A stretch of 64,000 nt of DNA from contig NZ_VAUA01000006.1 of NCBI RefSeq assembly GCF_005771405.1, positions 207,251 through 271,250 of the forward strand. Reading direction: 5' to 3'. Positions 1-48,748 of the stretch are shown here, piece by piece. Below the pieces are notes generated by a model. The model searched no databases and was not told where the DNA came from. It was given only the letters and a program-made list of their open reading frames with translations. Position numbers and translations under genes: made by a program. Each line of letters opens with the position of its first letter. Position 1 is the stretch's first letter. The stretch is from Parasedimentitalea maritima. GTDB taxonomy: Bacteria; Pseudomonadota; Alphaproteobacteria; Rhodobacterales; Rhodobacteraceae.

Positions 1-43
1 CCATGCCCGTGCCCTGCGTCGTTTGCCACGTGGTGTGATCCCC

Positions 44-2254
44 ATGGGTTATACAGAAGAGCTGAAAACCTCGGGAAACAAGGCGTTGCGTTTGTCAGTT
101 CTCAAAAATGCAGGTTTGCCGGTTCCTGGTGGAGTGGTGGTCCGAGCTGACGCAATTCAGGACTACCGCCAGATGACACTTGCTCAGAAAGGGGCCTTTG
201 CCGCGAAGATTTGGCAACTGGCGGGGCAAAAACCATGCGCCGTTCGCAGTTCGGCCAGCAACGAAGATGGTGCAGACCAAAGCTTTGCCGGGGTTTTTGA
301 ATCCGTTTTGGACGTTAGTGCTCTGACTATGCAAAGCGCGCTACAGACCGTGGTGGACAGCTTCACCTCTGAACGCGCCGCCAGCTATGATTTTGAGGCT
401 ACGGATGAAAACGCCGGCAATATTCTGGTGCAGGAAATGGTGGAGGCAGAGTATGCGGGCGTGATGTTCACCCAGGATCCCACCGCACCCGGAATGGTCA
501 TGATTGAATGGGTCGAAGGTTGTGGCGAGGATCTGGTTTCCGGTCGTGTCACCCCAACCTCGCTGCGATTTGGCCGCTACACCCGCTTGGCAGCGGATAC
601 GGAGCAGGACCAAACTTTGGATATGGCCCCTCTGTTGGAATTGGGCCGTCAGATCGAAGACACCTTTGGCTGTCCGCAAGATGTCGAATGGGCCTATGCG
701 AATGGACAGTTCCAAATTGTGCAAAGCCGCGACATCACAACATTGAATTTGGGCAGCGAACAGGAACAGATCCGGTTGAGCGAATGGCGGAACGTATTGG
801 ACCGCTTTGCTGGTGCCGAACCGGACCAGATCATACTTGAGCAGGATGAAATGTCCGAAGTCCTGCCTCGCCCGACCCCTCTGTCCTTTTCGTTGATGGG
901 ACGTCTGTGGTCGCCGGGTGGCAGCGTTGATCTGGCCTGCCGTGAATTGGGTGTTCCCTATGGCCTGCCCGAAGGTCCGGATGGCCATTTGGTCAACCTG
1001 TTTGGAAAAACCTATGTGGATGTTGCGCTGAAGCAAAGCATGACGCTGAACCTTAGTTCGTCCAAGGCCAAACAGCTGCGCAAAATCGCGGACCCGCTGA
1101 TCACCCAATTCCGCGCTGAAACCATTCCCGACCTGACCCAGAAACTGGCACTTTGGCAGGCGGTGGACTATACCGCCCTGCCCTTACCCAAGCTGGTTGA
1201 AACCATTGATCTGTTGCAGAAAATGCTGGTGCTGGACATCTATGTAGAGGCCGAGAAAATCAATATTCTGGCAGGTTTCACCATGGGTGAGGCCAGCGCT
1301 GCCGCACAGGAGGATCCCACATTGCGGACCCATTTGATGCAGGCAGAGCTGCCCAATGCTCCAACCAGCCTGATTGCAAGCTGCAAAGGTAAGTCGGCGC
1401 AGACCCGGGCGCTGCAACTGATGGGGCATCGGTCAATCTTTGACTACGAACTTAGCACACCGCGCTATATCGAAGCGCCAAGTCTGTTGTGGTCGCTGCT
1501 GGACAGCTCGGATGCTGACACTGAAATCGCAAAACCACGCGCATCTCAACTGCCAGCTAACCTGCCCGGTGAGCTCAGCACGGTGTTGGAACGGGCTTTG
1601 GCCTTTCAGGATCTCAAAGAACAGGCGAAACACGAAGCACTGCGGGTGGTTGCCGAAATTCGTCGCGCTGCCCTCGCACTTGGCCGGGTCAGCAGACTGG
1701 AAGATCTTGTTTTCTACCTGAGCTTTGACGAGTTGCTTATGGGCGACTGGAGCCAACCCGCACAGCTCCGCCAAATGGCAATGACACGTAAAGATAAGGC
1801 TGCATTGAGCAAAAAGTCAGCTCCGACAGAAGTCAGCCTGACTCTGCGTGATTGCGAAATGTTGTCACTCGGAAAACTGGCTCAAAGCAGTGATGGCACA
1901 CTTGGCGGGACCTGTGTCGCTGGCAGTGGTGCCTCCACTGGCCGGGTATTGTGGATCGAAGATGACAGTTCCACTGACCCTGCCCTTTTTGATGGTTTCC
2001 GCGACGGTGACATTTTGGTCTGCCGGATGATCAATCCAGCCTGGTTGCCTTGGGTGCAAAGATCAGGTGCAGTGTTGTCCGAGGTCGGTGGCTGGCTTAG
2101 CCACATGGCAATTGTCGCTCGTGAAAAGGACATCCTGATGTTGGTGGGCTGCAAAGCGCTGGATCAGATTGACAGTGGTACCCGGATCACCGTTTCTGAC
2201 AACGGCACCATTGAGCGTGCCCCGCTGACAGAACTCAAAGTTGTCTCGGCCTGA
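44..2254 (+). CDS. PEP synthase / pyruvate phosphate dikinase-like protein
   Basis: This is a PEP-utilising enzyme of the PEP synthase / pyruvate phosphate dikinase / rifampicin phosphotransferase superfamily, about 736 aa. The N-terminal ATP-grasp part shows AVRSSA followed by an EDG..SFAG stretch (residues about 66-83) and the VEWA...VQSRDIT end of the ATP-binding domain (about 210-235). A long helical middle follows. The C-terminal mobile phosphohistidine domain has GGWLSHMAIVARE, with the likely phospho-His near residue 687. The ATG at 44 is chosen because the family N-terminus (GNKALRLSVLKNAGLPVPGG) follows soon after. A TTG at 23 and the fully open frame back to base 2 mean the gene could start earlier or outside the window. 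The substrate is unknown. It ends at a hairpin shared with the convergent manC. Confidence 0.75.
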   Translation: MGYTEELKTSGNKALRLSVLKNAGLPVPGGVVVRADAIQDYRQMTLAQKGAFAAKIWQLAGQKPCAVRSSASNEDGADQSFAGVFESVLDVSALTMQSALQTVVDSFTSERAASYDFEATDENAGNILVQEMVEAEYAGVMFTQDPTAPGMVMIEWVEGCGEDLVSGRVTPTSLRFGRYTRLAADTEQDQTLDMAPLLELGRQIEDTFGCPQDVEWAYANGQFQIVQSRDITTLNLGSEQEQIRLSEWRNVLDRFAGAEPDQIILEQDEMSEVLPRPTPLSFSLMGRLWSPGGSVDLACRELGVPYGLPEGPDGHLVNLFGKTYVDVALKQSMTLNLSSSKAKQLRKIADPLITQFRAETIPDLTQKLALWQAVDYTALPLPKLVETIDLLQKMLVLDIYVEAEKINILAGFTMGEASAAAQEDPTLRTHLMQAELPNAPTSLIASCKGKSAQTRALQLMGHRSIFDYELSTPRYIEAPSLLWSLLDSSDADTEIAKPRASQLPANLPGELSTVLERALAFQDLKEQAKHEALRVVAEIRRAALALGRVSRLEDLVFYLSFDELLMGDWSQPAQLRQMAMTRKDKAALSKKSAPTEVSLTLRDCEMLSLGKLAQSSDGTLGGTCVAGSGASTGRVLWIEDDSSTDPALFDGFRDGDILVCRMINPAWLPWVQRSGAVLSEVGGWLSHMAIVAREKDILMLVGCKALDQIDSGTRITVSDNGTIERAPLTELKVVSA

Positions 2255-2265
2255 ACTCACCCAAA

Positions 2266-2303
2266 AATGCCACGCACCAAGGAAACACCTGTTGCGTGGC
2301 ATT
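2266..2303. terminator. Bidirectional hairpin terminator between the PEP-enzyme gene and manC
   Basis: AATGCCACGC (2266-2275) and GCGTGGCATT (2294-2303) form a perfect 10-bp inverted repeat with an 18-nt loop, between the stop codons of two convergent genes. There is no long U tract, so its efficiency as an intrinsic terminator is uncertain. Confidence 0.6.
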
Positions 2304-2331
2304 AGTATAAGTGAGTTAGTGCAACTCTCTA

Positions 2332-3765
2332 TCAGCTGCGGGCATAGACATCCTCATAGCGAATGATGTCATCCTCACCCAGATAACTACCGGTCTGAAC
2401 TTCGATCAATACCATTGGCACTTTGCCCGGGTTTTCCATTCGGTGTACCGCACCTAGTGGAATGTAAACCGACTGGTTTTCAGTCACCAGTTTTACATCG
2501 TCGTCCACCGTAACCTTGGCCGTCCCTTCGACCACGATCCAGTGTTCCGAGCGATGGTGATGGCTTTGCAGGCTCAACGCTGCACCGGGGTGGACCACGA
2601 TGCGCTTCACCTGAAACCGGTCTCCCACAACCAGACTTTCGAACCAACCCCATGGCCGGTGATCTTTTGGGAATGCCGTGGCTTGGTTGGCTTGTTTTGC
2701 CTTCAGCGCAGCAACCGCCAGTTTCACGTCCTGGGTCCGGCTGGCATCCGCCACCAGAACAGCATCCGGCATCGCAACTGTAATAATGTTCTTCAGACCG
2801 ATGCCGACCACTTCCAGCCCTGCATCTTCGGACCTCAACAGGCTGCCTTCGCAATCAATCGCCGTTGCCGCTCCCTGCGCCACCACACCGTCTGCGTCTG
2901 GCCCTGCCTCGCGCCAAACAGCATCCCAGCCGCCCAGATCGGACCAGCCAGCAGCAAAGGGAACCACTGTTAAGTTCTCAGCCTGCTCCATCACGGCATA
3001 GTCGATCGAAATATCATCGGCTCCGCTCCAGGCCTGAGGATCAAGACGCAAGAACCCCAAATCAGGTAAGCCCTGTTTCACCGCCGCTTGCACAGCCGGC
3101 ATCAGATCTGGTGCATGGGCTTGAAAAGCCGCGACAATACTCTTGACCGAAAACAGGAAAATTCCTGCGTTCCACAAGTAGTTACCCGCAGCCAGCATCT
3201 CTTTGGCGGTTTTGGCATCTGGCTTTTCGACAAACTGCTTTAACCCAATTGGGCGTGGAGAAAAATCGCCTGCATCCCCATCCAGTTCCAGATAACCATA
3301 GCCCGTTTCAGCATGGGTGGGTTTGATACCAAAAGTGACCAACTGCCCGTCTTGTGCCGCTGTCACACCGGCCTCAACTGCGGCCCGGAAAGCGGAGGCA
3401 TCAGGCACTACATGATCCGACGGGGCCACCAACATCAGCCCATCTGGGTCGGATTTTTGCAAATGTAACGCCGCGGCCAGTACCGCAGGTGCTGTGTTGC
3501 GACCTTCGGGTTCGATCAAAATAGCGCCGGGATCAATTCCAACTTCCGACAACTGCTCCGTAACAATAAAACGGAAGTCAGAATTGGTCAGCACCAAAGG
3601 CGCTGCATAGCCTGCACCTGACAGCCGCTGCGCAGACGCCTGAAAAAGAGTGGTATCGCCAAGCAGCGGTGAAAACTGCTTGGGATAGCTTTTACGAGAC
3701 AGCGGCCAAAGCCGGGTCCCGGAACCGCCACAAAGGAGAACAGGGGTGATGGTTGATGTTGCCAC
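2332..3765 (-). CDS. manC: Mannose-1-phosphate guanylyltransferase / mannose-6-phosphate isomerase (copy 1)
   Basis: Bifunctional type II ManC/CpsB/XanB enzyme, 477 aa, making GDP-mannose from mannose 1-phosphate and GTP, with a C-terminal cupin isomerase domain. Visible motifs are the nucleotidyltransferase signature CGGSGTRLWPLSR near residue 12, the FVEKP mannose-1-phosphate site, and the cupin metal site SLQSHHHRSEHW with VEGTA near residue 410. It starts with GTG; GAGG lies 9 nt upstream. It is the last gene of the minus-strand operon gmd-colC-colD-manC (14-nt gap to colD) and supplies the GDP-mannose that operon consumes. A paralogue of identical length lies at 12072-13505. Confidence 0.93.
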   Translation of the reverse strand: MATSTITPVLLCGGSGTRLWPLSRKSYPKQFSPLLGDTTLFQASAQRLSGAGYAAPLVLTNSDFRFIVTEQLSEVGIDPGAILIEPEGRNTAPAVLAAALHLQKSDPDGLMLVAPSDHVVPDASAFRAAVEAGVTAAQDGQLVTFGIKPTHAETGYGYLELDGDAGDFSPRPIGLKQFVEKPDAKTAKEMLAAGNYLWNAGIFLFSVKSIVAAFQAHAPDLMPAVQAAVKQGLPDLGFLRLDPQAWSGADDISIDYAVMEQAENLTVVPFAAGWSDLGGWDAVWREAGPDADGVVAQGAATAIDCEGSLLRSEDAGLEVVGIGLKNIITVAMPDAVLVADASRTQDVKLAVAALKAKQANQATAFPKDHRPWGWFESLVVGDRFQVKRIVVHPGAALSLQSHHHRSEHWIVVEGTAKVTVDDDVKLVTENQSVYIPLGAVHRMENPGKVPMVLIEVQTGSYLGEDDIIRYEDVYARS

Positions 3766-3779
3766 GTTGATATACCTCG

Positions 3780-4946
3780 TTACAGCGCTGCCAACGCATC
3801 AATTGCCTCGGGGGTAGCATAATGATGATTGCCAACAAACAATCCGAATTCATCTATATAGTCAGCGTTTTTCAGCTCGCCATGGATGTCATAATCAAAG
3901 TATTTCATCACTTCGTTTTTAGCAAAATTTCCGGCCACAATCGGGCGACATTCAAAGCCGGCTTCTGTTAGCTTTTTGACAAAGTCGGCGCGCTTTAAGC
4001 CCAGATCAGGGCGCAACACCAACGAAAATCCAAACCAACTGCTGTTGCCTATTTCGCGCTGAATGATGAACTTTGGGTGATTGCCTAACTTGGCCTGCAG
4101 CATTGCTCCATTGGCGCGGCGACCTTTGACCAGATCCGGAAGCTTTTTCAGCTGTTCAATGCCCAAGGCGCCTGACATTTCCAGCGGTCGTAGGTTGTAA
4201 CCCGGCAGCACAAATCGGAAGCTTTCTTCAAACGGGTCATCCGACTTTTCACCTGTCACGTGATTGAACTTGGGCAGGTTACGGGTCCAACCATGGGCGC
4301 GCAGACTTAGCATCACGTGGTACAGCTCTTCGTCATCAGTCACCACAATCCCGCCTTCCATGGTCGAGATATGGTGCGAGAAAAACGCCGAGTAACTGCC
4401 GACTGCGCCAAAGGTACCGCATTCTTTGTCGTTGAATGTAGCACCCATGGATTCGCAGTTGTCTTCCATCACGACAATTTCGCGGCCGGCAATGATGCGA
4501 TCAATTGCATCAAAGTCATTTGGATTGCCCAACAGGTTCACGACCATGATCGCCCGTGTTTTGTCGGTCACGGCCTCGGCAAGTGCATCCAGATCGTAGT
4601 TCAGAGTAGCCAGATCGATGTCCACAAACTGCATCTTCAGACCATATTGGCCCAAGGGGTAATAGGTGGTCGACCAGCTGACTGCGGGCACGATGATTTC
4701 GTCGCCGCGTTCCAGCTTTAGATCTGGGTTCTTAGTAAAGCACAGCGCCGCCGTCATCAGCAAGTTGGCGGAGGAGCCCGAATTCACCATCACAGCAAAT
4801 TTGCTACCAAATTGTTTGGCGAACTGCTCCTCAAAGGCCCGCACTTCCGGACCCATAGAAAACATATCACTGTCGATCACCCGTTGCAGAGCATCATATT
4901 CAGCCTGATCCCAGGACGAAGTAGCAAGAGGGTACTTAGGGCTCAT
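3780..4946 (-). CDS. colD: GDP-4-keto-6-deoxy-D-mannose 3-dehydratase (ColD-like)
   Basis: DegT/DnrJ/EryC1/StrS-fold PLP enzyme of 388 aa. In sugar aminotransferases the PLP Schiff-base Lys precedes an xI(T/S)xxEGG motif. Here that stretch reads SHHISTMEGG and His191 takes the lysine position, the substitution that defines the 3-dehydratases ColD and RfbH rather than aminotransferases. The PLP-anchoring acidic motif MEDNCESMG (about 160-168) is present. ColD removes the C3 hydroxyl of GDP-4-keto-6-deoxymannose using PLP and glutamate. The ATG at 4946 is chosen over an upstream in-frame start at 5024 because it overlaps the colC stop as ATGA, giving translational coupling. Neighbouring gmd, the epimerase/reductase gene and manC supply the rest of a GDP-colitose route. 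The RfbH branch (CDP sugars) is less likely because all neighbours act on GDP sugars. Confidence 0.8.
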   Translation of the reverse strand: MSPKYPLATSSWDQAEYDALQRVIDSDMFSMGPEVRAFEEQFAKQFGSKFAVMVNSGSSANLLMTAALCFTKNPDLKLERGDEIIVPAVSWSTTYYPLGQYGLKMQFVDIDLATLNYDLDALAEAVTDKTRAIMVVNLLGNPNDFDAIDRIIAGREIVVMEDNCESMGATFNDKECGTFGAVGSYSAFFSHHISTMEGGIVVTDDEELYHVMLSLRAHGWTRNLPKFNHVTGEKSDDPFEESFRFVLPGYNLRPLEMSGALGIEQLKKLPDLVKGRRANGAMLQAKLGNHPKFIIQREIGNSSWFGFSLVLRPDLGLKRADFVKKLTEAGFECRPIVAGNFAKNEVMKYFDYDIHGELKNADYIDEFGLFVGNHHYATPEAIDALAAL

Positions 4947-5878
4947 GTCGCAAAGCTTTCCAGATAATAACGATAAGTCTGCGCGATTCCGTCGCGCAAG
5001 GATGTCGGGGCCTGCCAGCCCCATTGAGTCTGACGTTCAGTCGAGCAGAGCTTCTGCTTCATGCCGACCGGTTTGCTCAGATCATGGGTAAACTCACCAT
5101 CCCAACCGATAACGTCTGCCACAACAGCATAATAGTCGTTGATAGAATGATCGTGGCCCAAGCCAGTGTTCATGTTGTCAGGCAAGTTCTCGATGTCATC
5201 AGCCGCCCGCAAGACCGCATCGGCCAGATCGCCGGCATACATAAATTCACGCCGTGCAGTACCATCCCCCCAGATTTCAACGGTGGCTTCGCCATTCTTC
5301 CGGGCCTCGTGCACCTTGTGGATAATGGCAGGTACCAGATGCGAATGTTTGGGGTCAAATTTGTCATGCCGCCCATACAGGTTGCATGGGATCAATGTCT
5401 TGTAGTGAGCACCGGCATCTTCACGACGAATGTAGTCACACAGGCGCATCGCCAGAATTTTCGCAATGGCATAACCTTCGTTGGTAGGTTCCAGCTCTCC
5501 GGTCAGCACCATGTCTTCGCGCAGTGGATTTTCTGCTGCACGGGGGTACATGCAGGTCGAGGCCAAGTTCAGAAACTTACGCACCCCATTACGATGTGCG
5601 CCCATAATGATGTTACGGCCCATTGCGGTGTTTTCATCCAGAAACGCCACTGGATTTGCCATATTGGCCTGAATGCCGCCAACCCGGCCAGCGGCATGAA
5701 CCACCAGATCCGGTTTGTGTTGTCCCAAATAGGCATCAACGGCACCCGCATCGGTCAGGTCAAGTTCACCGCTGCGTGGCGCTAAGATCGACCAATCTGC
5801 AGCCGAAGCATGCTCTTGAATATTCTGCCCAACCAAACCACCTCCGCCGGTCAGGAGCAAAGTGCCCTTAGTGCCCAT
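4943..5878 (-). CDS. GDP-L-colitose synthase / GDP-L-fucose synthase-like epimerase-reductase
   Basis: Extended SDR of the GDP-fucose synthase (Fcl/WcaG) and ColC family, 311 aa. It has the NAD(P)-binding motif TGGGGLVGQ (10-18), catalytic Ser107, Tyr136 and Lys140 (YAIAK), and the epimerase residues Cys109 (STCMYP) and His180 (SHLVPA), at nearly the same positions as in E. coli Fcl. It would epimerise C5 and reduce C4 of a GDP-4-keto-6-deoxyhexose. Fcl (fucose) and ColC (colitose) are close homologues and cannot be separated by motif alone. Because the next gene encodes a ColD-like dehydratase with ATGA coupling, ColC is favoured. It starts 3 nt after gmd; GAGG lies upstream inside the gmd end. 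Confidence 0.85.
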   Translation of the reverse strand: MGTKGTLLLTGGGGLVGQNIQEHASAADWSILAPRSGELDLTDAGAVDAYLGQHKPDLVVHAAGRVGGIQANMANPVAFLDENTAMGRNIIMGAHRNGVRKFLNLASTCMYPRAAENPLREDMVLTGELEPTNEGYAIAKILAMRLCDYIRREDAGAHYKTLIPCNLYGRHDKFDPKHSHLVPAIIHKVHEARKNGEATVEIWGDGTARREFMYAGDLADAVLRAADDIENLPDNMNTGLGHDHSINDYYAVVADVIGWDGEFTHDLSKPVGMKQKLCSTERQTQWGWQAPTSLRDGIAQTYRYYLESFAT

Positions 5879-5881
5879 GGA

Positions 5882-7003
5882 TTAATCCTCGCGCGCAACG
5901 GGTTCGTCATACCCGTGATCTTTCAAAACGCGGGCACGCTGCGCGGATTTCAGATCCGTACGAACCATCTCTGCACACATTTCCTGCACAGTAATCTCGG
6001 GCGTCCAGCCTAGTTTCGCTTTGGCTTTGGCCGGATCGCCCAGCAGGGTTTCCACCTCGGCGGGGCGGAAATACCGGGGATCAATACGCAAGATCACATC
6101 ACCTTCTTTCAGGGCTGGTGCCTCATCACCGCTAATGCTGTCGACAACAGCAACCTCGTCTAGGCCAGAGCCTTCGAAACGGACTTTGATCCCCAACTCT
6201 GCAGCAGACCATTCGATGAACTGACGCACCGAATATTGTACACCAGTGGCAATGACAAAATCTTCAGGCTCATCTTGTTGCAGCATCATCCACTGCATGC
6301 GCACATAATCTTTGGCATGGCCCCAGTCGCGAAGCGCGTCGATATTGCCCATATACAGACAAGGCTCCAACCCCTGCGCAATATTGGCCAGTCCACGGGT
6401 GATTTTGCGCGTGACAAAGGTCTCACCACGTCGCGGGCTCTCGTGATTGAACAAGATTCCGTTGCAGGCATACAGGCCGTAGGCCTCGCGGTAGTTCACC
6501 GTAATCCAATAGGCATACATTTTGGCCACTGCATAAGGACTGCGCGGGTGAAACGGCGTGGTCTCGGTTTGGGGCGTTTCCTGTACCAATCCGTAAAGCT
6601 CCGAAGTTGAAGCCTGGTAGAAACGGCTCTTCTTCTCTAACCCCAAAAAGCGGATAGCCTCGAGGAGCCGCAGCGTGCCCATGGCATCCACATCCGCTGT
6701 GTATTCTGGTGAATCAAAACTAACCGCAACATGACTTTGCGCGCCAAGATTATAGACTTCGTCCGGCTGCACTTCTTGTAGAATCCGAGTCAGGTTTGAA
6801 CTGTCGCTAAGATCACCGTAATGTAGCTTGAACCGAGCGCTATCCGTATGCGGGTCCTCAAAAATATGGTCCACTCGTTGGGTGTTAAATGACGAGGCTC
6901 GCCGCTTGATGCCATGGACTTCATAGCCTTTTTCCAACAAAAATTCTGCCAGATATGAACCGTCCTGACCGGTCACGCCGGTGATAAGTGCTGTCTTAGT
7001 CAT
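5882..7003 (-). CDS. gmd: GDP-mannose 4,6-dehydratase
   Basis: Converts GDP-mannose to GDP-4-keto-6-deoxymannose, the branch point to GDP-fucose, GDP-perosamine and GDP-colitose. The 373-aa protein is the usual length. It shows [20 protein letters not shown] at the NADP-binding N-terminus, [10 protein letters not shown] (the Gmd tetramer and NADP loop), STSELYG carrying catalytic Ser/Thr and Glu, [10 protein letters not shown] with catalytic Tyr and Lys, and [16 protein letters not shown]. It is first in the minus-strand operon followed by the epimerase/reductase, colD and manC. About 105 bases separate it from the next upstream gene, so a promoter probably lies there. Confidence 0.95.
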
Positions 7004-7109
7004 TCACGTGCCAATCATATTTTTTTCGGCTATTTCGCCATGTTTAGTTATCGTAGCGCTTCCAGCTACTCGTTTGCTGAACAATAGCAGGTTACCAAGC
7101 TCTTGCAGA

Positions 7110-8384
7110 TCAAAGCCGTAAGTCACTGTGATCGGCAGGAAGAACATACTTCAAATCATAGACCACGGCCCCCGGTTTGCCCAACGTTCGGATTTGAGCC
7201 TCTCCCATGGTATGGAATTCGTCATGCGCTACTGCCAGAACGATCCCATCATAGGCCCCTTGCTGTGGCGCCTCAACCAGTTCCAGATTAAACTCAGTGC
7301 GGGCATCCGCTGGTGCAACATTTGGATCAGACACATCAACCTGAACACCAAAGTCTTCTAACCCACGCACCACATCAATCACTCGTGTATTGCGCAAATC
7401 GGGGCAGTTCTCTTTGAAAGTCAGCCCCATCACCAAAACCCGTGCATCCACCACCTGAATGCGGCGTTTCAGCATGGCCTTGATCATCTGCTGAGCCACG
7501 TAGGCTCCCATTCCGTCGTTTAGCCGCCGTCCTGCCAACAGGATTTCAGGGTGATATCCAACCTGCTCAGCTTTATGAGTTAGGTAATAGGGATCAACAC
7601 CGATACAGTGACCACCGACCAACCCGGGGCGAAACGGCAAGAAGTTCCACTTGCTTCCTGCGGCCCGCAACACCGCCTCTGTATCGATATTCAGCCGGTT
7701 AAAGATTTTCGCAAGTTCGTTGATCAACGCTATGTTTATGTCTCGTTGGCTGTTCTCGATCACCTTGGCCGCCTCGGCGACCTGGATGCTCTCGGCGCGG
7801 TAAGTGCCGGCAGTGATAATCTCGCGGTAAAGTGCGTCCACCTGGTCGGCTGTTTCCGGAGTCGAGCCTGATGTCACCTTAACTATAGTGGTCAAACGAT
7901 GTGTTTTGTCACCTGGGTTGATCCGCTCAGGGCTATAGCCCACATAAAAATCCCGGTTAAAGGTCAACCCAGAGCGAGCTTCAAGAATAGGTACGCATTC
8001 CTCTTCGGTGGCGCCGGGGTAAACGGTGGATTCGTAGATAACGATATCACCCGGCGCCAGAACCCGACCCACCAGCTGCGATGCGCGCTCCAGGGGTCCC
8101 AGGTCAGGGCGGCGACTGGTATCAATCGGGGTTGGTACGGTGACAATGTAGATGGAACAAGTCGCGATTTCAGCGGTATCGCTAGTAAAGCTCAGGTGCT
8201 GGGCCAGACCCATTTCATCCGGTTCAATCTCGCGGGTCAAATCCTGTCCCTGGCGAAGCTGGTCGATGCGATCCTGATTAATATCAAATCCCACCACCTC
8301 GCGGTGTTTGCCGAACTCAACAGCCAGCGGTAAACCGACATAGCCCAAGCCAATCACACAGATCCGATCCACCGCATTGCTCAT
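7110..8384 (-). CDS. UDP-N-acetylhexosamine 6-dehydrogenase (WbpO/TviB-like)
   Basis: Nucleotide sugar dehydrogenase of 424 aa, predicted to oxidise UDP-GlcNAc or UDP-GalNAc to the uronic acid with two NAD+. Motifs are the Rossmann start [49 protein letters not shown], the [17 protein letters not shown] helix, and [19 protein letters not shown] with the catalytic Cys. [11 protein letters not shown] and [12 protein letters not shown] mark the WbpO/TviB/WecC subfamily rather than UDP-glucose dehydrogenases. An AGGAG sits about 10 nt before the ATG at 8384. It faces away from the 705-base gap to its right. UDP-ManNAc as substrate (WecC) cannot be excluded. Confidence 0.85.
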
Positions 8385-9089
8385 CTATAGCCTACTCCTG
8401 ATGTCTCGTAAGACTCTCACCCATTGCCTCTCCTATAAGTCACGGAGTGTCACTGCAACCATCAGGACACCAACACAATATCCAGGTCTGCTGCGTTACT
8501 CAGGTTTAACTTCGATATTTGGAGCAATTTGGTCTCCTAAAGGGAGCATCGGAACAGGGTATCGAGGTAGATCTATCTGCAACCAATCGTTGGCTGCACA
8601 AGTTTGACCCGTAGAGGGGAGCCTGCACGGCCCAATCGCTTAACAATCACAACGCCCCAACCCTTTGCTGGTTTTCTTAAGGCGGTTTTGCCTCTAAAAG
8701 GCACGGAACAGCCTACTTGATTCTTTGGTTGTTGTGGTAACTTCTTTGGGGCTCCCTAATGAAAGTGCATTGCTAATGAGTTTTAAGGTCTGAGGTAAAG
8801 GTATGGACGCTTCCGCTAAATTGAGTGAATTTTCCGGAACATCTCATTGGACTTTCCCACGCGGTTTTTTTCACCAACCTACGCCTTCTGACGCTAGAAC
8901 GGACAAAACACTTCTAGTTTATACGCGGCATTCAACAAGTTTGGCACCTGCAACATTTGTCTCGCCAGGCGCCCTCCGAAGATCCGCTTTGAATTGCCAA
9001 GCACACCGCAACTTATAGAAACTGCTGCTTATTTTGATTTTTGCCGTGAATAATTTTATTGGCGCAGACAGCGCAAAAAGGGATAATCC
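8385..9089. other. Gene-poor 705-base gap between divergent dehydrogenase genes
   Basis: No convincing gene is seen. A 71-codon open frame at 8803-9018 (plus) has no recognisable domain and no good ribosome binding site. The sequence looks more AT-rich and less ordered than its neighbours. It must hold promoters for the minus-strand dehydrogenase and for ugd on the plus strand, but no clear -35/-10 pair or JUMPstart/ops element was recognised. Confidence 0.5.
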
Positions 9090-10256
9090 ATGAAAATTTC
9101 TGTTGCCGGTATAGGTTATGTAGGGTTGTCGAACGCAGTATTGCTCGCCCAGAATCACGAAGTGACTGCGATCGATGTTTCGAGTGAGCGGGTGGACATG
9201 GTTAACAGTCGTCGCTGCCCGATAGTTGACGCAGAACTCGAAGACTTTCTGGCCAATAAGCCCCTTTCTCTTTCTGCCACAACAGATGGCCTCACTGCGT
9301 TCAAAAGCGCAGACTTTGTGATTGTGGCAACGCCCACAAACTATGACCCGTCCACAGATTTCTTCGACACATCAAGTGTTGAAAATGTGATCAGAGCGGT
9401 TTTAAGTGTCAACGAAAACGCAACGATTGTGGTCAAATCAACAATACCTGTGGGATTCATTAACCGCATCCGAAAAGAACTCGACACCAATCAGGTTATT
9501 TTCTCGCCCGAATTTCTGCGCGAGGGTCGTGCATTGTATGATAACTTGCACCCTAGCCGGATCGTAGTAGGTGAGATTTCTGAACGCGCGAAGATATTTG
9601 CCAATCTCCTAATGGAAGGGGCGGTAAAATCGGACATATCCGTTCTCTATACTGACCCTGATGAAGCCGAAGCGATTAAGCTATTTGCCAACACTTTCCT
9701 GGCCATGCGCGTCGCGTTTTTTAATGAACTCGACAGCTATTCCATGGCTGGCGGTATGGATAGCCGACAGATCATTGAAGGCATCGGTCTGGATCCGCGC
9801 ATTGGGACACACTACAATAATCCGTCATTTGGCTATGGTGGCTATTGCCTGCCAAAAGACACCAAACAACTGTTAGCCAATTACTCTGATGTTCCACAAA
9901 ACCTTATCCGCGCCATCGTCGACGCCAACCGCACACGCAAGGATTTCCTTGCTGACCAGATCATTGCAAAAAAGCCCAATGTTGTAGGTGTGTATCGTCT
10001 TGTTATGAAAGCAGGCTCGGACAACTTCAGACAGTCATCAATTCAGGGCATCATGAAGCGACTTAAGGCCAAGGGTATTGAAGTCGTAATCTATGAACCT
10101 GTGATGGATGATAACGAGTTTTTCGGATCCCGGGTTATACGTGACCTCAGCGTTTTTAAAAATGAAGCTGATATTATCGTCGCAAATCGTCTTACTGATG
10201 AAATGCACGATGTCGAAGGTAAAGTGTTTACTCGGGATCTGTTTGGAGCGGATTGA
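9090..10256 (+). CDS. ugd: UDP-glucose 6-dehydrogenase (short, E. coli type)
   Basis: Oxidises UDP-glucose to UDP-glucuronate. The 388-aa length and start [20 protein letters not shown] match the short enterobacterial Ugd subfamily. Motifs are [52 protein letters not shown] and [14 protein letters not shown] with the catalytic Cys. The C-terminus has VVIYEP and FFGSRVI. Its codon and base composition looks more AT-rich than the gmd operon, and the protein is of a different type from the 440-aa enzyme at 17677, so lateral acquisition is plausible. It starts at ATG 9090; AAAAGGGA lies about 7 nt upstream. Confidence 0.93.
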
Positions 10257-10563
10257 TGATTTTTCAAGCTGCAATTCAAGAGTTGAAGAGCTGCATTTAG
10301 ATATTATTAGTCAAAACATTGCAGGTGATTTTTCTACCGGTCTCAATCTTCGTAAGCCCGTACAAGAAATCAGACGGCACTCACTGTTGCTTACCGTCCT
10401 CAAAAGTCATCTCTTGACCAAACCATCATGCATAATTCGTGTACGGCTAAGTCATTCAGCAGGGCTGCGTTAAGTGACTTGAACAATCGATACCAGCTAT
10501 ACCCAGTAGATCCTGATATTGACCCGTTTTTGGGTTTTCAGCTACCTACCAGGTATGCGTGTA
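10257..10563. other. AT-rich gap between ugd and the kinase relic, no gene recognised
   Basis: About 300 bases between the 3' ends of two convergent genes. Short open frames on the plus strand (for example 10428-10628) have no recognisable product. ACCC-GTTTT-TGGGT near 10521 could be a weak hairpin. It may be decayed coding DNA, but no family can be named. Confidence 0.4.
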
Positions 10564-11178
10564 TTAGCTGTAGTATCCGCCGTATTTGTACCCTTGTTGG
10601 CTGCCCTCATAGAAATTCAGAGTGCTAACCAAGTTGGTTTCTGGCCTTAGTGCGCCCGCCAAATGGTGGTACGCTGCTCTAAGCTCCATCTGGCTCGTTT
10701 CGCCAAAGCGGACGCATAAAACAGCAACATCTGCCAGTGGTGCGATGTATCGTGTATCGACAACAGGGAGTAAGGGCGCAGAGTCGATAACCACAACATC
10801 AAATGTAGCCCGGGATTCAGCTATCAAATCGTGAAACACTTTACCCTGCAGGGGTGCATCTGTCGGAGTGTTCGCTCTGTGGCTGCCGAGGATAAGCCCC
10901 AGTTTACTGATCGGATCCAAGACATAGAACTCTTCAACAGGGTCTTGGCTTCCCTTGGATTGTTTGTCTTTGGAGACTTCATCGACTTTTACAGCCCCGC
11001 CATTCATCAAGTAGTCCATCAAGCCATATGCAGGCTTTTCACCTAGAAATTTCTGGATGTTGGGATTACGTAAATCAGCATCAATGAGTAGGGTCCGTTT
11101 CCCCGCTTGGGCATACGTCCGAGCAAGTGAAAGTGCTGTTGTGGACGTGTCGGCCGATGTCCAGACAGATACAAACAA
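10564..11178 (-). pseudogene. Truncated bacterial tyrosine kinase (CpsD/ExoP C-terminal domain) lacking the P-loop
   Basis: Remnant of a BY-type tyrosine autokinase that controls polysaccharide chain length. It keeps Walker A' (LLIDADLRNP), Walker B (VVVIDSAP) and a tyrosine-rich tail (YEGSQQGYKYGGYYS). The N-terminal Wzz/chain-length part is absent, because immediately upstream the DNA encodes the sugar transferase on the other strand. The P-loop is also missing: the sequence reads SVWTSAD then TSTTALSLA, as if five residues of the type PGEGK had been deleted in frame between D and T. The only available start is TTG 11178, with a stop just before it. The protein should not bind ATP normally. 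It is either a pseudogene or, less likely, a phosphorylatable tail protein without kinase activity. Confidence 0.7.
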
Positions 11179-11791
11179 AAGCCTCTATGCCAAAGGTGGA
11201 AAGCGCTTCTTTGACCTTGTTCTGGCTCTAGTTCTTTTGCCAGTCATCGCACCAGTTGTAGCTATCCTCGCACTTCTAGTCCGACGCGACGGAGGCCCCA
11301 GCTTTTTCGGCCATAGTCGCATTGGGCAAAACGGTCGTGTTTTCAAATGCTGGAAAGTTCGCACCATGGTGCATGGCGCTGAAGAGCGGTTGCAGGCCTA
11401 TCTCACCGACAACCCTGCCGCCGCTGCCGAATGGGAACGCGACCACAAGCTGACAAACGATCCGCGTATTACTCGTGTTGGTGATTTCCTGCGTAAAACC
11501 AGCTTGGATGAGTTACCGCAAATCTGGAACGTGCTGAAGGGCGAGATGAGTTTTGTTGGCCCACGCCCAATCGTGCGTGCAGAACTTGCTAAATATGGCA
11601 TTTCGGCAAACGTCTATCTTAGTCTAAAACCTGGGATTACAGGTCCATGGCAAGTCTCAGGGCGCAATGACGTGAGCTATGATGAGCGAGTAGCGATGGA
11701 CGTCGACTATAGTCTTCGTGGGTCTTTAAAATTTGATGCCGAATTGATCCTTCGTACCGGCATGGCAGTACTAGACCGAACAGGAAAATAG
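11141..11791 (+). CDS. Priming exopolysaccharide sugar transferase (ExoY/WcaJ C-terminal type)
   Basis: Polyprenyl-phosphate hexose-1-phosphate transferase that starts a repeat unit by moving a sugar phosphate to undecaprenyl phosphate in the inner membrane. It shows the short ExoY architecture: one membrane segment ([21 protein letters not shown]) and the catalytic domain with [33 protein letters not shown] and [15 protein letters not shown]. The domain begins only at GKRFFD. Everything upstream is antisense to the kinase relic, so the N-terminus appears newly formed. GTG 11141 (216 aa) gives a normal ExoY length; ATG 11057 in the same frame would add 28 unrelated residues, and GTG 11147 is also possible. 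No strong ribosome binding site is seen. It is the only sugar transferase in the window. Confidence 0.8.
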
Positions 11792-12071
11792 CACTGTTGA
11801 ATCAGGGTGTCAGCCACATGGGATCAAGCTTCCATAGCTCATTGCTGACCATGTTCCGTCAATAAGCCAGTGATGCTTTCGCTTTTATCTGGCATGCAGG
11901 TGGTCAGCACGGGCACTACGAAAAGTCCTTTTTCAGTAGGTAATCATGCTCCATTTGGCTAGAATCTCTTAAAAACTTCTCTCCCTTGGGCTGAGGAAAC
12001 GACCAAAAATCTATAAAGTAGTGCTCTCACCACAGAGCATATTCAACTCTCTTAAGTTCATTGAGGCCAAT

Positions 12072-13505
12072 ATGATTTATCCCGTAATTCTCTGCGGAGG
12101 TTCCGGCACAAGGCTGTGGCCTCTTTCACGTAAAAGCTACCCAAAGCAATTTGCCCCACTCATTAATGATGAGACTTTGTTCCAAGCCTCTGCACAGCGC
12201 TTACAGGGAGAAAAGTTTGCTTCTCCCGTGATTATGACAAGTTCTGATTTTCGCTTTATCGTTACAGAACAACTTGCCGCCATTGGGATCGACCCAGGTG
12301 CAATTCTGATCGAACCAGAACCCCGCAACACCGCCCCAGCTGTTTTGGCTGCGGCTTTACATATCAGTAAGAGCGACCCGGACGCGGTTATGCTGGTTGC
12401 ACCGTCCGACCACGTTGTTCCTGATCGCGAGGCGTTTCAATCTGCCGTGCAAAAAGGCCTGACCGCAGTCACTGAGAATAAGCTCGTCACATTTGGTATT
12501 AGCCCAACCCATGCCGAGACAGCATATGGTTACTTGGAATTGGCGGCCGCACCAGATGGTGAAGGGTCGGCCGTCGACTTAGCACGGTTTGTTGAAAAGC
12601 CGCATGCCCGCAAAGCCGCCGATATGTTAGAGGCCGGAAACTTCCTTTGGAATGCCGGTATCTTCTTGTTTAAGGCCACTCAAATCATCGCTGCCTTCAA
12701 AGAATATGCGCCGCAAATGCTGGTGTCGGTTGAAGAGGCTGTCAACGAAGCTCAGACCGATCTTGGATTTCTGCGGCTGGCTAAGGATGCCTGGTCTAAC
12801 ACCGACAACATCTCCATCGATCATGCGATCATGGAGCGCGCCAAGAACTTGTCAGTCGTGCCATTTGACAGCGGCTGGTCTGATCTAGGAGGTTGGGACG
12901 CGGTCTGGCGGGAGAGCAACGCTGATAAGCAGGGCGTGGTCACCACAGGTGACGCCACTGCAATTGAATGCAAAAACTCGCTGCTACGTTCAGATAGCGA
13001 CCGGCTAGAAATTGTCGGCATCGGCCTGAACAATATCGTGGCTGTGGCAATGAACGACGCCGTACTTGTTGCCGACATGTCGCGAGCACAGGAGGTTAAA
13101 CTTGCGGTCAGTGCTCTAAAGGCCAAGGGCGCGACGCAAGCAGTGCAATTTCCCAAGGACCACCGACCTTGGGGTTGGTTCGAAAGCCTAGTGGTTGGCG
13201 ATCGCTTTCAGGTTAAACGTATACATGTTCATCCCGGTGCGGCGCTCTCGTTACAAAGCCACTTCCATCGTTCAGAGCATTGGATTGTAGTCGAGGGCAC
13301 TGCCCGCGTGACAGTCGATGATAAGGTGCGTCTCATAACTGAAAACCAATCAGTCTACATTCCTCTAGGTGCGGTTCATCGAATGGAGAACCCTGGCAAA
13401 GTGCCGATGGTTTTGATCGAAGTACAAACCGGGTCTTACGTTGGGGAAGATGACATTATCCGCTACGAAGATATTTATGATCGCCGAGAGGATGAAGCGA
13501 ATTGA
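12072..13505 (+). CDS. manC: Mannose-1-phosphate guanylyltransferase / mannose-6-phosphate isomerase (copy 2)
   Basis: Second bifunctional GDP-mannose pyrophosphorylase/isomerase, 477 aa, the same length as copy 1 at 2332 and nearly collinear with it. It has LCGGSGTRLWPLSR at the N-terminus, RFVEKP, and the cupin site SLQSHFHRSEHWIVVEGTA. Most differences are conservative, and over the last 110 residues the copies are almost identical. ATG 12072 is chosen because GAGG stands 6 nt upstream and the family sequence starts right there; a GTG in frame at 12021 would add 17 unrelated residues. It stands alone between gaps of about 280 and 630 bases. It may serve a mannose-containing polymer or a GDP-sugar other than colitose. 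Confidence 0.93.
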   Translation: MIYPVILCGGSGTRLWPLSRKSYPKQFAPLINDETLFQASAQRLQGEKFASPVIMTSSDFRFIVTEQLAAIGIDPGAILIEPEPRNTAPAVLAAALHISKSDPDAVMLVAPSDHVVPDREAFQSAVQKGLTAVTENKLVTFGISPTHAETAYGYLELAAAPDGEGSAVDLARFVEKPHARKAADMLEAGNFLWNAGIFLFKATQIIAAFKEYAPQMLVSVEEAVNEAQTDLGFLRLAKDAWSNTDNISIDHAIMERAKNLSVVPFDSGWSDLGGWDAVWRESNADKQGVVTTGDATAIECKNSLLRSDSDRLEIVGIGLNNIVAVAMNDAVLVADMSRAQEVKLAVSALKAKGATQAVQFPKDHRPWGWFESLVVGDRFQVKRIHVHPGAALSLQSHFHRSEHWIVVEGTARVTVDDKVRLITENQSVYIPLGAVHRMENPGKVPMVLIEVQTGSYVGEDDIIRYEDIYDRREDEAN

Positions 13506-14132
13506 AGCCTTAAAAGTTTCAACTCAGCCGACCCTTTGAGGATGGATTGAATACACTTTCCTTAACTTAGGCTTCGCGGCCACGGGTAAAAATTACCGCG
13601 AAAGGCTATACACCAAGCCTTCGTCAGATCGACATGCCGGTCCGCCTATGATGCTGCGCCTCTGAAGACCCGGGCGAAACTCAAAGTGTGTCGTTTGATC
13701 TAGTACACAGCCGGAAAACAGGTATGACACTGCAACCAAGACGTTTTTCCAGCGCGCGATTACCTCGAACTAAGTAGCTGAGCAGCAGAAAGACCTTGGC
13801 AAAAACCAGGTGCAGAACACAACAGGTTGCTGGTGTTCAAATGGAGATTGCTCCTTAGATTATCGACGTGGCGTAAGGACCAAAATGCGCCCTTGTGTCG
13901 GACACTTCATCGGTTGTGGCAACACGAACCGTAACGTTAGTCAGTTGGCACTTGCCAGATCCCATGAAGCATTTGGGCAATAAGGGTTGAAGTTGAACAA
14001 TATATCTCGTGCGGCTTACCTGTACGTCCTAGCGAGATATCGCTTTTTGGCTTAGCTCCATTTAGATAGACAGTGGAATGTAGCACCATTGGATGTGGCG
14101 CGCTTAATTCGGAACTAATTGGGGACGTTGTT
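13506..14132. other. Long non-coding or decayed gap upstream of the rhamnose operon
   Basis: About 630 bases without a credible gene on either strand. It holds a 7-bp inverted repeat TTCGCGG/CCGCGAA (13573-13602) and a hairpin near 14002. Scattered short frames give no recognised protein. It may be degenerate mobile or coding DNA, but no transposase motif was found. The rfbCBDA promoter should lie in its right part. Confidence 0.45.
14002..14047 (+). terminator. Hairpin with T run upstream of rfbC
   Basis: ATATCTCG (14002-14009) pairs with CGAGATAT (14033-14040) over a 23-nt loop and is followed by CGCTTTTT. It lies about 90 nt before the rfbC start, so it could be an attenuator or a terminator of upstream transcription. 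Confidence 0.4.
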
Positions 14133-14693
14133 TTGGATATTTCTTTGACAGGTTTAGACGATGTCTATCGAATTACCCCTTCGCGTTTTGGTGACCATCG
14201 CGGGTTCTTTTCCGAAAGCTGGAATAAGAAAACCCTGTCTGGGTTGGGGCTGGATCTACCAGAATTTGTGCAAGACAATCACTCTATATCGAGCAAAGTT
14301 GGCACAGTGCGCGGACTGCATTTTCAAAGTCCTCCCCATGCTCAGGGCAAATTGGTACGTTGTGGACGCGGCCGTATTTTTGATGTTGCCGTAGATGTGC
14401 GCAGGGGCTCGCCAACATTTGGTCAATGGATAGGCGAAGAGTTATCGTTTGAAAACGGTAACCAACTGTGGATACCTGCTGGTTTCTTACATGGGTTCAT
14501 GACGTTGGAAGCTGATAGCGAGATCATTTACAAGTGTACTGACCACTATGCGCCCGAATGTGATGGTGCAATAAAATGGGATAGCTGTGGTGTCGATTGG
14601 CCGTTAGAGGGCATTACCCCAATTATCTCCGATAAGGACGAGAAGGCACCCACGTTTGAGACCTTCCAGACTCCATTCAACTACAAGGGTTAA
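14133..14693 (+). CDS. rfbC: dTDP-4-dehydrorhamnose 3,5-epimerase
   Basis: Cupin-fold epimerase, third step of dTDP-L-rhamnose synthesis. Motifs are RITPSRFGDHRGFFSESW near the N-terminus, FVQDNHSIS, VRGLHFQ with the catalytic His, VDVRRGSPTFGQW, and LWIPAGFLHGFM. TTG 14133 is preferred because GGGGA stands 7 nt upstream and it gives 186 aa, the usual length. An ATG at 14073 in the same frame would add 20 residues without family similarity. It is the first gene of rfbCBDA, 3 nt before rfbB. Confidence 0.9.
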   Translation: MDISLTGLDDVYRITPSRFGDHRGFFSESWNKKTLSGLGLDLPEFVQDNHSISSKVGTVRGLHFQSPPHAQGKLVRCGRGRIFDVAVDVRRGSPTFGQWIGEELSFENGNQLWIPAGFLHGFMTLEADSEIIYKCTDHYAPECDGAIKWDSCGVDWPLEGITPIISDKDEKAPTFETFQTPFNYKG

Positions 14694-14696
14694 ATA

Positions 14697-15746
14697 ATGA
14701 AGGTTTTGGTAACTGGCGGTGCAGGATTCATTGGCTCTGCGGTATTGCGGTTGGCCGTCGCGCGAGGCCACGATGTTGTCAATGTCGATGCACTAACCTA
14801 CGCGGCTTGCCTTGAAAATGTAGCCGAAGTGGCGAATAGCCCTCATTATGCATTTGAACACGTTGATATTCGTGACCGCCCAGCACTCGACGTTGTTTTT
14901 ACCCGCCACCAGCCTGACATGGTGATGCATTTAGCGGCAGAAAGTCACGTTGATCGCTCAATTGATGGACCTGGTGACTTTATCGAAACCAACATCACGG
15001 GCACTTTCAATATGTTGGAAGCAGCCCGAAAATATTGGACCGACGCAGGTAAACCAGAGAGCTTTCGTTTCCACCACATCTCAACGGACGAGGTTTTTGG
15101 TTCTTTGCCAAATGACCCGGACGTGCTTTTCACTGAAGAGACAGCCTATGACCCGCGGTCGCCCTATTCGGCTTCCAAAGCTAGCTCTGATCACCTGGTA
15201 CGCGCCTGGCAAGAAACCTATGGCATGCCAGTTGTGCTGACCAATTGTTCGAACAATTATGGTCCCTTTCACTTCCCCGAGAAGTTGGTACCGGTTGTCA
15301 TTCTTAATGCGCTGGCGGGGAAAGAACTGCCAATCTATGGGACTGGCGCGAATATTCGTGACTGGCTTTACGTTGAAGATCACGCAGATGCACTATTGTT
15401 GGTAGCCGAAAAGGGCGAAGTGGGTCGCAGCTATAACATCGGCGGTGAAAATGAGCGCTCCAATCTGGAGCTGGTCAAAGCGCTTTGTGCTATTTTAGAT
15501 GATAGGCGACCCAAGCCGAGTGGCAGCTACGCTGATCAAATCACCTTTGTCGCCGATCGTCCGGGCCATGATGCTCGCTATGCCATTGATCCGACGCGAA
15601 TTCGTGACGAATTGGGCTGGCGACCGTCGGTTACCGTCGAAGAAGGGCTCGCAAAAACCGTCGACTGGTACCTCGCGAATGAGGCGTGGTGGCGTGCCCT
15701 GCAAAATCGCCAGGGGGTTGGTGAACGGCTGGGTGTAAAAGCATGA
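14697..15746 (+). CDS. rfbB: dTDP-glucose 4,6-dehydratase
   Basis: Extended SDR of 349 aa converting dTDP-glucose to dTDP-4-keto-6-deoxyglucose. It shows [15 protein letters not shown], the catalytic [11 protein letters not shown] (Thr-Asp-Glu), [15 protein letters not shown] (Tyr/Lys), [18 protein letters not shown] and [21 protein letters not shown], with GGENERSN near the C-terminal third. It overlaps rfbD by four bases (ATGA), indicating translational coupling in the rhamnose operon. Confidence 0.96.
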
Positions 15747-16588
15747 TCGTCTTTGGAAAAACGGGACAAGTCGCGACTGAACTGAGAAAGCTTTTGCCTA
15801 CGGCCACATTTTTGGGCCGGGAGCAGGCGGACCTAAGTGATCCTGCGGCCTGTTACGCTGTCATTATGGCTGCGAAACCAGACGCGGTCATCAATGCGGC
15901 CGCATATACGGCAGTTGATAAAGCCGAAGAGGACACGGTGTTGGCCGCGTTGATCAATGGTGCTGCACCAGGGCAAATGGCAAAGGCATGTGCCGAGCTT
16001 GGCATTCCATTTGTTCATATTTCGACAGATTACGTTTTCGACGGACAGGGTGATGCACCCTTTAAAGCAGATCATCCCACCGCACCCTTGGGGGCATACG
16101 GGCGCACAAAACTGCAAGGTGAAGAAGGGGTGCGTGCGGAAGCAGGTACACATGCGATCCTGCGCACTTCCTGGGTGTTCTCTGCTCATGGAAATAATTT
16201 CGTCAAAACAATGCTGCGCCTTTCAGAGACGCACGACAACCTAACGGTCGTCGCAGATCAAACCGGCGGACCAACGTCAGCACGTGATATTGCCAAAGCC
16301 TGCGTAGAAATATCAAAGCAGCTTAAAACCGACCCAACGAAGTCTGGCACCTACCATTTTTCGGGATACCCCAATGTGAACTGGGCTGATTTTGCACGTT
16401 TAATTTTTGTACAGGCTGGTAAAACGGTGACGGTTGAGGGAATTCCTACTTCTGCTTATCCCACACCTGCAACCCGACCCTGTAACAGCCGACTTGACTG
16501 CAGCATGACCGAGACCATTTTTGGTGTTGCACGCCCAGAATGGAAAGACGCATTGTCCGCTTGTTTGAGCGAACTGGAGACTAAGTAA
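15743..16588 (+). CDS. rfbD: dTDP-4-dehydrorhamnose reductase
   Basis: SDR-fold reductase of 281 aa that makes dTDP-L-rhamnose with NAD(P)H. Motifs are [14 protein letters not shown] at the start, [24 protein letters not shown] (catalytic Thr), [13 protein letters not shown] (Tyr/Lys) and [19 protein letters not shown], then [14 protein letters not shown]. It starts inside the rfbB stop (ATGA), and its stop shares a base with the rfbA start (TAATG). Confidence 0.95.
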
Positions 16589-17472: not shown

Positions 17473-17676
17473 ATGATTGCGATGACCGAAATAGCCCTGC
17501 TTGTTCGGATAGGTTTAAGGCTCGGCTAAACAGCATTTGGGCTCGCCTTCATACAGCTTGTTTCACTCATTTATGGCCAAAGTCGATGTATGCAAGGTCC
17601 GGTTTATCTTCCCAGCCCATTCTTTTTTGCTTCGGGTGTTTCTCAACAAGTGAAGAAACTGGAGAAATTCCGATCT

Positions 17677-18999: not shown

Positions 19000-19304
19000 A
19001 TGAGGTTGCCTTGCAGGAGGAATTTTGACCAATATTGCCATCTAAATATTGATTTTCAAAGCAGTTTAATGCCGCGACAACGGCAACCTTCTGGACTGCA
19101 CTAGAAAGCTACGAACCGTTTCCCCTACACTTTTCAAAGTTGTGCATTCCAACCGCCATAGATCAACAGCCGGGTTAGCGAGACTTTTGAGGATTTTAGG
19201 GAACCAACCGTAACCATCGGCCAGTTCCGCATAGCCCGGTATCTGTCCGTCAAACTAAGACCATGGTCATATACCAACTTGCCACTGCGTTCGTTGAACT
19301 AGGT
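19000..19304. other. Intergenic region upstream of ugd
   Basis: About 305 bases between ugd (reading left) and the stop of ugpC. No gene or clear hairpin is seen. It should contain the ugd promoter on the minus strand. Confidence 0.4.
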
Positions 19305-47606: not shown

Positions 47607-47630
47607 AGCGGCTTCCTTCCTGTTATAAGT

Positions 47631-48650: not shown

Positions 48651-48687
48651 TCATAATTGCTCGGTTGAACGACAACCTGTTTCAGGA

Positions 48688-48744
48688 AGCCCGCGCCGAC
48701 TACAAACCTGGGTAAGACCCAGATTTTTGTGCCCGGCGCGGGCT
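48688..48744 (-). terminator. Nested hairpins between MCP 1 and cheB
   Basis: Outer stem AGCCCGCGCCG (48688-48698) with CGGCGCGGGCT (48734-48744), 11 bp, encloses a second stem CTGGGT/ACCCAG (48708-48722). It lies just after the MCP stop and before cheB, as a terminator or attenuator. Confidence 0.65.
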
Positions 48745-48748
48745 GGGA

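What the first reader, a model, noticed from the sequence alone, without database searches (positions are those of the whole stretch)
3780..7003. Predicted GDP-colitose pathway in a roseobacter-like genome
The operon gmd-(fcl/colC)-colD-manC contains a PLP enzyme with His191 in place of the Schiff-base lysine (SHHISTMEGG), length 388 aa and ATGA coupling to the epimerase/reductase. That substitution marks 3-dehydratases (ColD, RfbH). With GDP-sugar neighbours the product should be GDP-L-colitose, a 3,6-dideoxyhexose best known from enterobacterial and Vibrio O antigens.
Basis: partly seen in the sequence, partly recalled or inferred. Interest (0 to 1): 0.75.

Follow-up and report, generated by a model that had tools for sequence, protein, structure and literature searches.

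The report
Colitose sugar genes in marine roseobacter
A marine bacterium carries the genes for a rare sugar, colitose, best known from gut-bacterial coats; the pathway itself is ordinary, but close relatives carry the gene for the common sugar fucose at the same spot instead.

Summary
On the minus strand lie gmd (7003-5882), an epimerase/reductase (5878-4943), a 388-aa PLP-fold enzyme with His191 at the Schiff-base position (4946-3780) and manC (3765-2332). The PLP enzyme is 64% identical to E. coli O55 ColD, scores 569 bits to solved ColD against 186 to RfbH/E1 and 104 to perosamine synthase, and falls with ColD in a tree. The reductase falls with the O55 ColC (53% identical), apart from GDP-fucose synthases. 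Expected product: GDP-L-colitose; nothing was assayed. The pathway is not new: of 80 ColD loci fetched (the best of 123), 79 have colC directly upstream, in several phyla. Less expected: in the same genus (that of Parasedimentitalea marina) three genomes carry colC-colD and four carry a true fcl at the same place between gmd and manC, and all seven keep an orthologous GT11 transferase. A published E. coli GT11 accepts both GDP-fucose and GDP-colitose, so a fucose/colitose donor swap with the transferase kept is testable. In five of these seven genomes the locus lies beside a DnaA-like/parAB module; it was not found in the window or its flanks.

The parts
3780..4946 (-). colD: PLP/PMP-dependent GDP-4-keto-6-deoxy-D-mannose 3-dehydratase (388 aa)
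   Evidence: 64% identical to E. coli O55:H7 ColD; 569 bits to solved ColD 2gms, 186 to RfbH/E1 3bcx; tree
4374..4376 (-). codon of His191, in place of the Schiff-base lysine
   Evidence: aligned with E. coli ColD His188; His in 82 of 82 ColD rows (80 loci, window, E. coli)
4943..5878 (-). colC: C5-epimerase/C4-reductase, GDP-L-colitose synthase (311 aa)
   Evidence: 53% to E. coli O55 ColC, 38% to E. coli Fcl; ColC group; 309 bits against the Fcl cut-off of 500
5882..7003 (-). gmd: GDP-mannose 4,6-dehydratase (373 aa)
   Evidence: TIGR01472 582 bits, cut-off 415; 79-80% to the two E. coli Gmd; only close copy in the genome
2332..3765 (-). manC: mannose-1-phosphate guanylyltransferase/mannose-6-phosphate isomerase (477 aa)
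   Evidence: TIGR01479 591 bits, cut-off 373
7110..8384 (-). tviB-like nucleotide-sugar dehydrogenase; conserved flank of the swap locus, not part of colitose synthesis
   Evidence: NF011729 634 bits, cut-off 592; at the same place in the six other gmd-bearing genomes of the genus

Best explanation
The four genes make GDP-L-colitose from mannose phosphate. ManC makes GDP-D-mannose; Gmd makes GDP-4-keto-6-deoxy-D-mannose; ColD, using PMP and glutamate, with His191 as acid/base, removes the C3 hydroxyl and releases ammonia to give GDP-4-keto-3,6-dideoxy-D-mannose; ColC epimerises C5 and reduces C4 to give GDP-L-colitose, which a glycosyltransferase then adds to a surface glycan. Shown: gene identity, order, orthology, catalytic residues, and that colC-colD stands where relatives of the same genus have fcl. 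Inferred: every reaction, the sugar, and its place in a glycan.
For: ColD identity; tree apart from RfbH and lysine-type enzymes; His in 82 of 82 ColD rows and no RfbH-type cysteine set. ColC: a 68-row group with E. coli O55 ColC apart from 25 Fcl rows; the curated Fcl cut-off of 500 is passed by E. coli Fcl (551) and two Fcl of this genus (524, 528) and missed by O55 ColC (304), the window (309) and two other colD-linked proteins (310, 319); the residues of the Fcl active site are kept. E. coli O55:H7 has the same colC-colD pair with the same 4-base overlap. colC directly upstream of colD in 79 of 80 loci, gmd in 66 of 80. Own genome: one Fcl/ColC-like gene, one close gmd. Mechanism as in the review PMC8987622 (passages).
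Against: No assay and no sugar analysis. C. jejuni enzymes 62-67% identical to ColD act on a GDP-heptose (PMC10440746), so 64% identity does not by itself fix the substrate. The O55 gene is taken as ColC from its place in a colitose cluster and from recall. No flippase, polymerase or GT1/GT2/GT11-type transferase was recognised among the neighbours scanned; an initiating sugar-phosphate transferase lies at 11057-11791, and the genome's seven PF00534 transferases are on other contigs.
Confidence: 0.9

Rival explanations
1. The operon makes a GDP-3,6-dideoxyheptose, as the ColD relatives of C. jejuni HS:5 and HS:11 do, not colitose.
For: C. jejuni C3-dehydratases are 62-67% identical to characterised ColD and act on GDP-6-deoxy-4-keto-heptose.
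Against: Gmd is 79-80% identical to E. coli GDP-mannose 4,6-dehydratase and over the gmd cut-off; manC is in the operon; the reductase is ColC-like. GDP-heptose genes were not searched for in the genome, and no C. jejuni enzyme was compared directly.
Confidence: 0.03
2. The reductase is an ordinary Fcl making GDP-L-fucose, and ColD serves a separate sugar.
For: Public records name the colC product 'GDP-L-fucose synthase'.
Against: It groups with ColC apart from Fcl and misses the Fcl cut-off; within the genus a true Fcl stands at this site only in the genomes without colD.
Confidence: 0.04
3. The PLP enzyme belongs to the CDP-sugar RfbH/E1 route (abequose, paratose, tyvelose) or is a 4-aminotransferase of perosamine type.
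For: Same family PF01041; RfbH has the same His.
Against: RfbH model 265 bits against a cut-off of 423; nine RfbH form their own clade and six lysine-type rows lie further out; three of the four RfbH cysteines are absent. The 4,6-dehydratases of this stretch are Gmd and, over the cut-off, dTDP-glucose 4,6-dehydratase in an rmlCBDA set; no CDP-glucose 4,6-dehydratase reached its cut-off among the 13 proteins scanned with NCBIfam.
Confidence: 0.01

Closest known systems
E. coli O55:H7 colC-colD (wbdJ-wbdK; first name recalled) with gmd and manC
   Same: Same four enzyme families; colC-colD adjacent with the same 4-base overlap; ColD 64%, ColC 53%, Gmd 79%, ManC 41% identical.
   Different: In O55 the genes sit in an O-antigen cluster with wzx, wzy and transferases, and the genome keeps a separate fcl. 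Here no such genes were recognised nearby and no separate fcl was found.
C. jejuni HS:5/HS:11 GDP-3,6-dideoxyheptose pathway
   Same: A 4,6-dehydratase followed by a ColD-like C3-dehydratase on a GDP sugar (PMC10440746, passages and one section).
   Different: Heptose substrate, separate epimerase and reductase; here ManC, a mannose-type Gmd and a ColC.
RfbH/E1 CDP-4-keto-6-deoxyglucose 3-dehydratase
   Same: His in place of Lys; C3 dehydration.
   Different: E1 is an iron-sulphur enzyme with a reductase partner (PMC8987622); nine RfbH rows are 30-35% identical to the window protein and form their own clade.
gmd-fcl-manC locus of four other genomes of the genus
   Same: Same flanks, same place.
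   Different: One fcl gene instead of colC-colD, so GDP-L-fucose is expected.

Membership tests
ColD (GDP-4-keto-6-deoxymannose 3-dehydratase) | Closest by sequence to characterised ColD, not to RfbH or perosamine synthase | tested here: met
   569 against 186 and 104 bits; tree
ColD (GDP-4-keto-6-deoxymannose 3-dehydratase) | His at the Schiff-base lysine position | tested here: met
   His191 = E. coli His188
ColD (GDP-4-keto-6-deoxymannose 3-dehydratase) | No iron-sulphur cysteine set | tested here: met
   of four cysteine columns present in 9 of 9 RfbH the window keeps one, as E. coli ColD does
ColD (GDP-4-keto-6-deoxymannose 3-dehydratase) | C3 dehydration of GDP-4-keto-6-deoxymannose with PMP and glutamate | not testable with these tools
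   needs an assay
ColC (GDP-L-colitose synthase) | Groups with the ColC of a colitose cluster, apart from Fcl | tested here: met
   E. coli O55 ColC inside the 68-row group
ColC (GDP-L-colitose synthase) | Ser/Tyr/Lys and Cys/His active-site residues of the Fcl fold (roles recalled) | tested here: met
   S107, C109, Y136, K140, H180
ColC (GDP-L-colitose synthase) | Epimerisation at C5 and reduction at C4 of the ColD product | not testable with these tools
   needs an assay
GDP-L-fucose synthase (NF047922) | Score over the curated cut-off of 500 | tested here: not met
   309 bits
RfbH (NF011936) | Score over the curated cut-off of 423 | tested here: not met
   265 bits
Gmd (TIGR01472) | Score over the curated cut-off of 415 | tested here: met
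   582 bits

The most novel reading that the evidence does not exclude
In the genus of Parasedimentitalea marina a locus that is plasmid-borne in most of its members switches its product between GDP-L-fucose and GDP-L-colitose (3-deoxy-L-fucose) by exchange of fcl and the colC-colD pair in place, while one unlinked GT11 transferase able to use either donor is kept, so that the same glycan position is capped with fucose in some species and with colitose in others.
Probability: 0.35. Interest if true: 0.6.

Novelty: new member of a known kind. Interest (0 to 1): 0.38.

Why it matters
It points to a 3,6-dideoxyhexose in roseobacters, where the papers seen report none, and shows how annotation hides it: records label ColC 'GDP-L-fucose synthase' and ColD a generic aminotransferase. 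The exchange of fcl for colC-colD between close relatives is a natural experiment on how one hydroxyl of a surface sugar is gained or lost, and on whether the transferase follows the donor. Effects on phages, grazers or algal hosts would be the ecological test (inference).

Tried and rejected
RfbH/E1, perosamine synthase and plain Fcl readings were tested and rejected. A co-switch of the GT11 with the donor type was tested and not seen: the GT11 of the colC-colD genome G297 is nearer to those of the fcl genomes G301 and G298 (90%, 87%) than to the window genome's (81%). Whether colC-colD spread once or more within the genus is not settled: the gmd tree joins the three colC-colD genomes (100), tviB (86) and isocitrate dehydrogenase (76, with the gmd-less G295) do so weakly, while PEP synthase (100), GT11 (99) and manC (82) put G297 with G298 and G301. 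Mutual exclusion of fcl and colD in the family is only suggestive: the six colD genomes that also appear each have a single Fcl/ColC-like match; no statistical test was made, and E. coli O55 has both. Two DOIs recalled for ColD structure papers, and the roseobacter biofilm-plasmid paper, are not held. Paper searches were too broad; the 15 papers listed hold no mention of colitose.

Full report
Observation. The window (G000:C20:207251-271250) carries, on the minus strand, gmd (5882-7003), a 311-aa epimerase/reductase (4943-5878), a 388-aa DegT-family enzyme (3780-4946) and manC (2332-3765). The reductase and the DegT enzyme overlap by ATGA. The DegT enzyme has SHHISTMEGG at 190-199; His191 aligns with His188 of E. 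coli ColD, the residue that the review PMC8987622 (passages seen) gives as standing in place of the lysine and acting as base and acid.

ColD. phmmer against solved structures gives E. coli ColD (2gms) 568.6 bits, RfbH/E1 (3bcx) 185.9 and perosamine synthase (3bn1) 104.3. No ColD model is among the NCBIfam hits; the RfbH model scores 264.6 against a cut-off of 423. Identity to E. coli O55:H7 ColD is 64%. In a 63-row tree (30 of the 80 ColD loci, window, E. coli, and 31 of the 34 loci; left out were two further copies of the window's own gene and one colD of G055) nine RfbH form a clade (100/99), six lysine-type rows lie further out, and the window lies with E. coli ColD and all 30 loci (98/86). 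Fourteen rows about 50% identical form a sister clade; one more (L138) and a very long row with His (L137) join near the ColD side, and the program warns about long branches. His is present in 82 of 82 ColD rows. Of the four cysteine columns present in 9 of 9 RfbH the window keeps one, as does E. coli ColD.

ColC. The reductase is 53% identical to E. coli O55 ColC and 38% to E. coli Fcl. The O55 gene is taken as ColC from its place beside colD in a colitose cluster and from recall; the biochemically studied ColC, of Yersinia, was not compared. In a 106-row tree (79 of 80 ColD-linked reductases, the fragment in L082 dropped, 24 Fcl of the same family, three references) 68 rows with the window and O55 ColC form a group (95/95) apart from 25 Fcl rows (100/99). 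Nine mostly archaeal rows, two Cryobacterium and two others (L060, L067) lie outside both; several branches are long and the bootstrap had not quite settled. The curated Fcl cut-off of 500 is passed by E. coli Fcl (551) and two Fcl of this genus (524, 528) and missed by O55 ColC (304), the window (309), P. marina (310) and G036 (319). Ser107, Cys109, Tyr136, Lys140 and the His are kept in the window; in the 79 loci the Cys is Thr in nine (residue roles recalled). The own genome has one such reductase at E <= 1e-10 and one close gmd; three further gmd matches are 28-31% identical.

How it works (inferred from the families; ColD mechanism from PMC8987622). ManC makes GDP-mannose, Gmd its 4-keto-6-deoxy form, ColD removes the C3 hydroxyl with PMP renewed by glutamate, ColC epimerises C5 and reduces C4 to GDP-L-colitose. 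A heptose substrate is possible in principle, since C. jejuni enzymes 62-67% identical to ColD act on a GDP-heptose (PMC10440746, passages and section 17), but Gmd here is 79-80% identical to the two E. coli Gmd and manC is in the operon. The other 4,6-dehydratase of the stretch is a dTDP-glucose one in an rmlCBDA set.

How common it is. In the family 9 of 295 genomes, the window's included, have a match to this ColD at E <= 1e-100; in the genus 3 of 8, the window's included. A scan of named genomes found 123 relatives and returned the best 80: many Rhodobacterales, other Alpha-, Beta- and a few other Proteobacteria, Bacteroidota, two Cryobacterium, and marine archaea (many are MAGs, and some labels may be wrong). 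In 79 of the 80 loci colC lies directly upstream on the same strand, in the other (L058) it is on the opposite strand; 57 show an ATGA/GTGA overlap; gmd is in 66 and manC in 20 of the 80, some contigs being short. Three roseobacter plasmids (P. marina, Phaeobacter sp. G2, Sulfitobacter sp. S223) are among 14 plasmid records with a relative.

Literature. A survey of 55 monosaccharide pathways in 12,939 genomes includes L-colitose and speaks of its absence in TACK archaea (PMC7725333, passages; its supplement, which may list roseobacters, was not seen). Colitose has been found chemically in marine Colwellia and Pseudoalteromonas (PMC8914368, PMC4052302, passages). Searches for colitose with roseobacter and with alphaproteobacter gave two and three papers; the colitose passages in PMC3210612 and PMC7725333 report none from a roseobacter; PMC13322260 and PMC12731072 were seen in the listing only. 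The library lacks most subscription journals.

The swap. Seven of eight genomes of the genus have gmd. In G000, G296 and G297 it is followed by colC-colD-manC; in G298, G299, G300 and G301 by fcl-manC, with Fcl 67% identical to E. coli Fcl. The tviB-like gene is on the other side of gmd in all seven. The PEP-synthase-like gene follows manC in six and was not recognised in G300. G301 has a second gmd-fcl copy where only those two genes were recognised, and a third, partial gmd match. Nucleotide similarity between the window and the four fcl genomes ends near 3750 and resumes at 5913-5965, that is, near the manC start and in the 3' end of gmd; in three of the four a match of 50-52 bases remains inside colC/fcl, as it does in the second G301 copy. 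Gene trees disagree on whether the three colC-colD genomes belong together (see Tried and rejected).

Transferase. The same seven genomes, and not the eighth, have a GT11 gene, on another contig than the gmd locus. The orthologues are 78-97% identical to the window genome's across both types and 32-35% identical to the GT11 of the E. coli O55 cluster; G296 has a second, divergent one. The window genome's copy is not beside polysaccharide genes among the neighbours scanned. E. coli WbgN and human FUT2, both GT11, use GDP-L-colitose and GDP-L-fucose in vitro (PMC11987014, passages; that WbgN is the L092 gene is my inference). Hence the donor-swap reading: the donor changes, the transferase stays. 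It is untested, the GT11 acceptor is unknown, and co-occurrence over eight genomes is weak support.

Replicon. In G297-G301 the tviB-like gene is next to a DnaA-domain gene and parAB; none of these was found in the window, in its 17.7-kb and 18.8-kb flanks, or in the 19.5 kb held of G296. The window matches pW43D from 23 to 8482 (76%), the upstream flank matches it as well, and so does 47095-51947. Compared with G296 the window has about 10.6 kb extra at 8610-19249: ugd, an initiating sugar transferase, a second manC, rmlCBDA and another nucleotide-sugar dehydrogenase. So the locus looks like plasmid DNA now on a replicon, or part of one, without that module nearby; the rest of the contig was not read, and an assembly join cannot be excluded, though the window has no N.

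Verdict. A sound and correct first reading of a known pathway in a group where it is little noticed. The pathway is a new member of a known kind; the in-place exchange with fcl is the part worth following.

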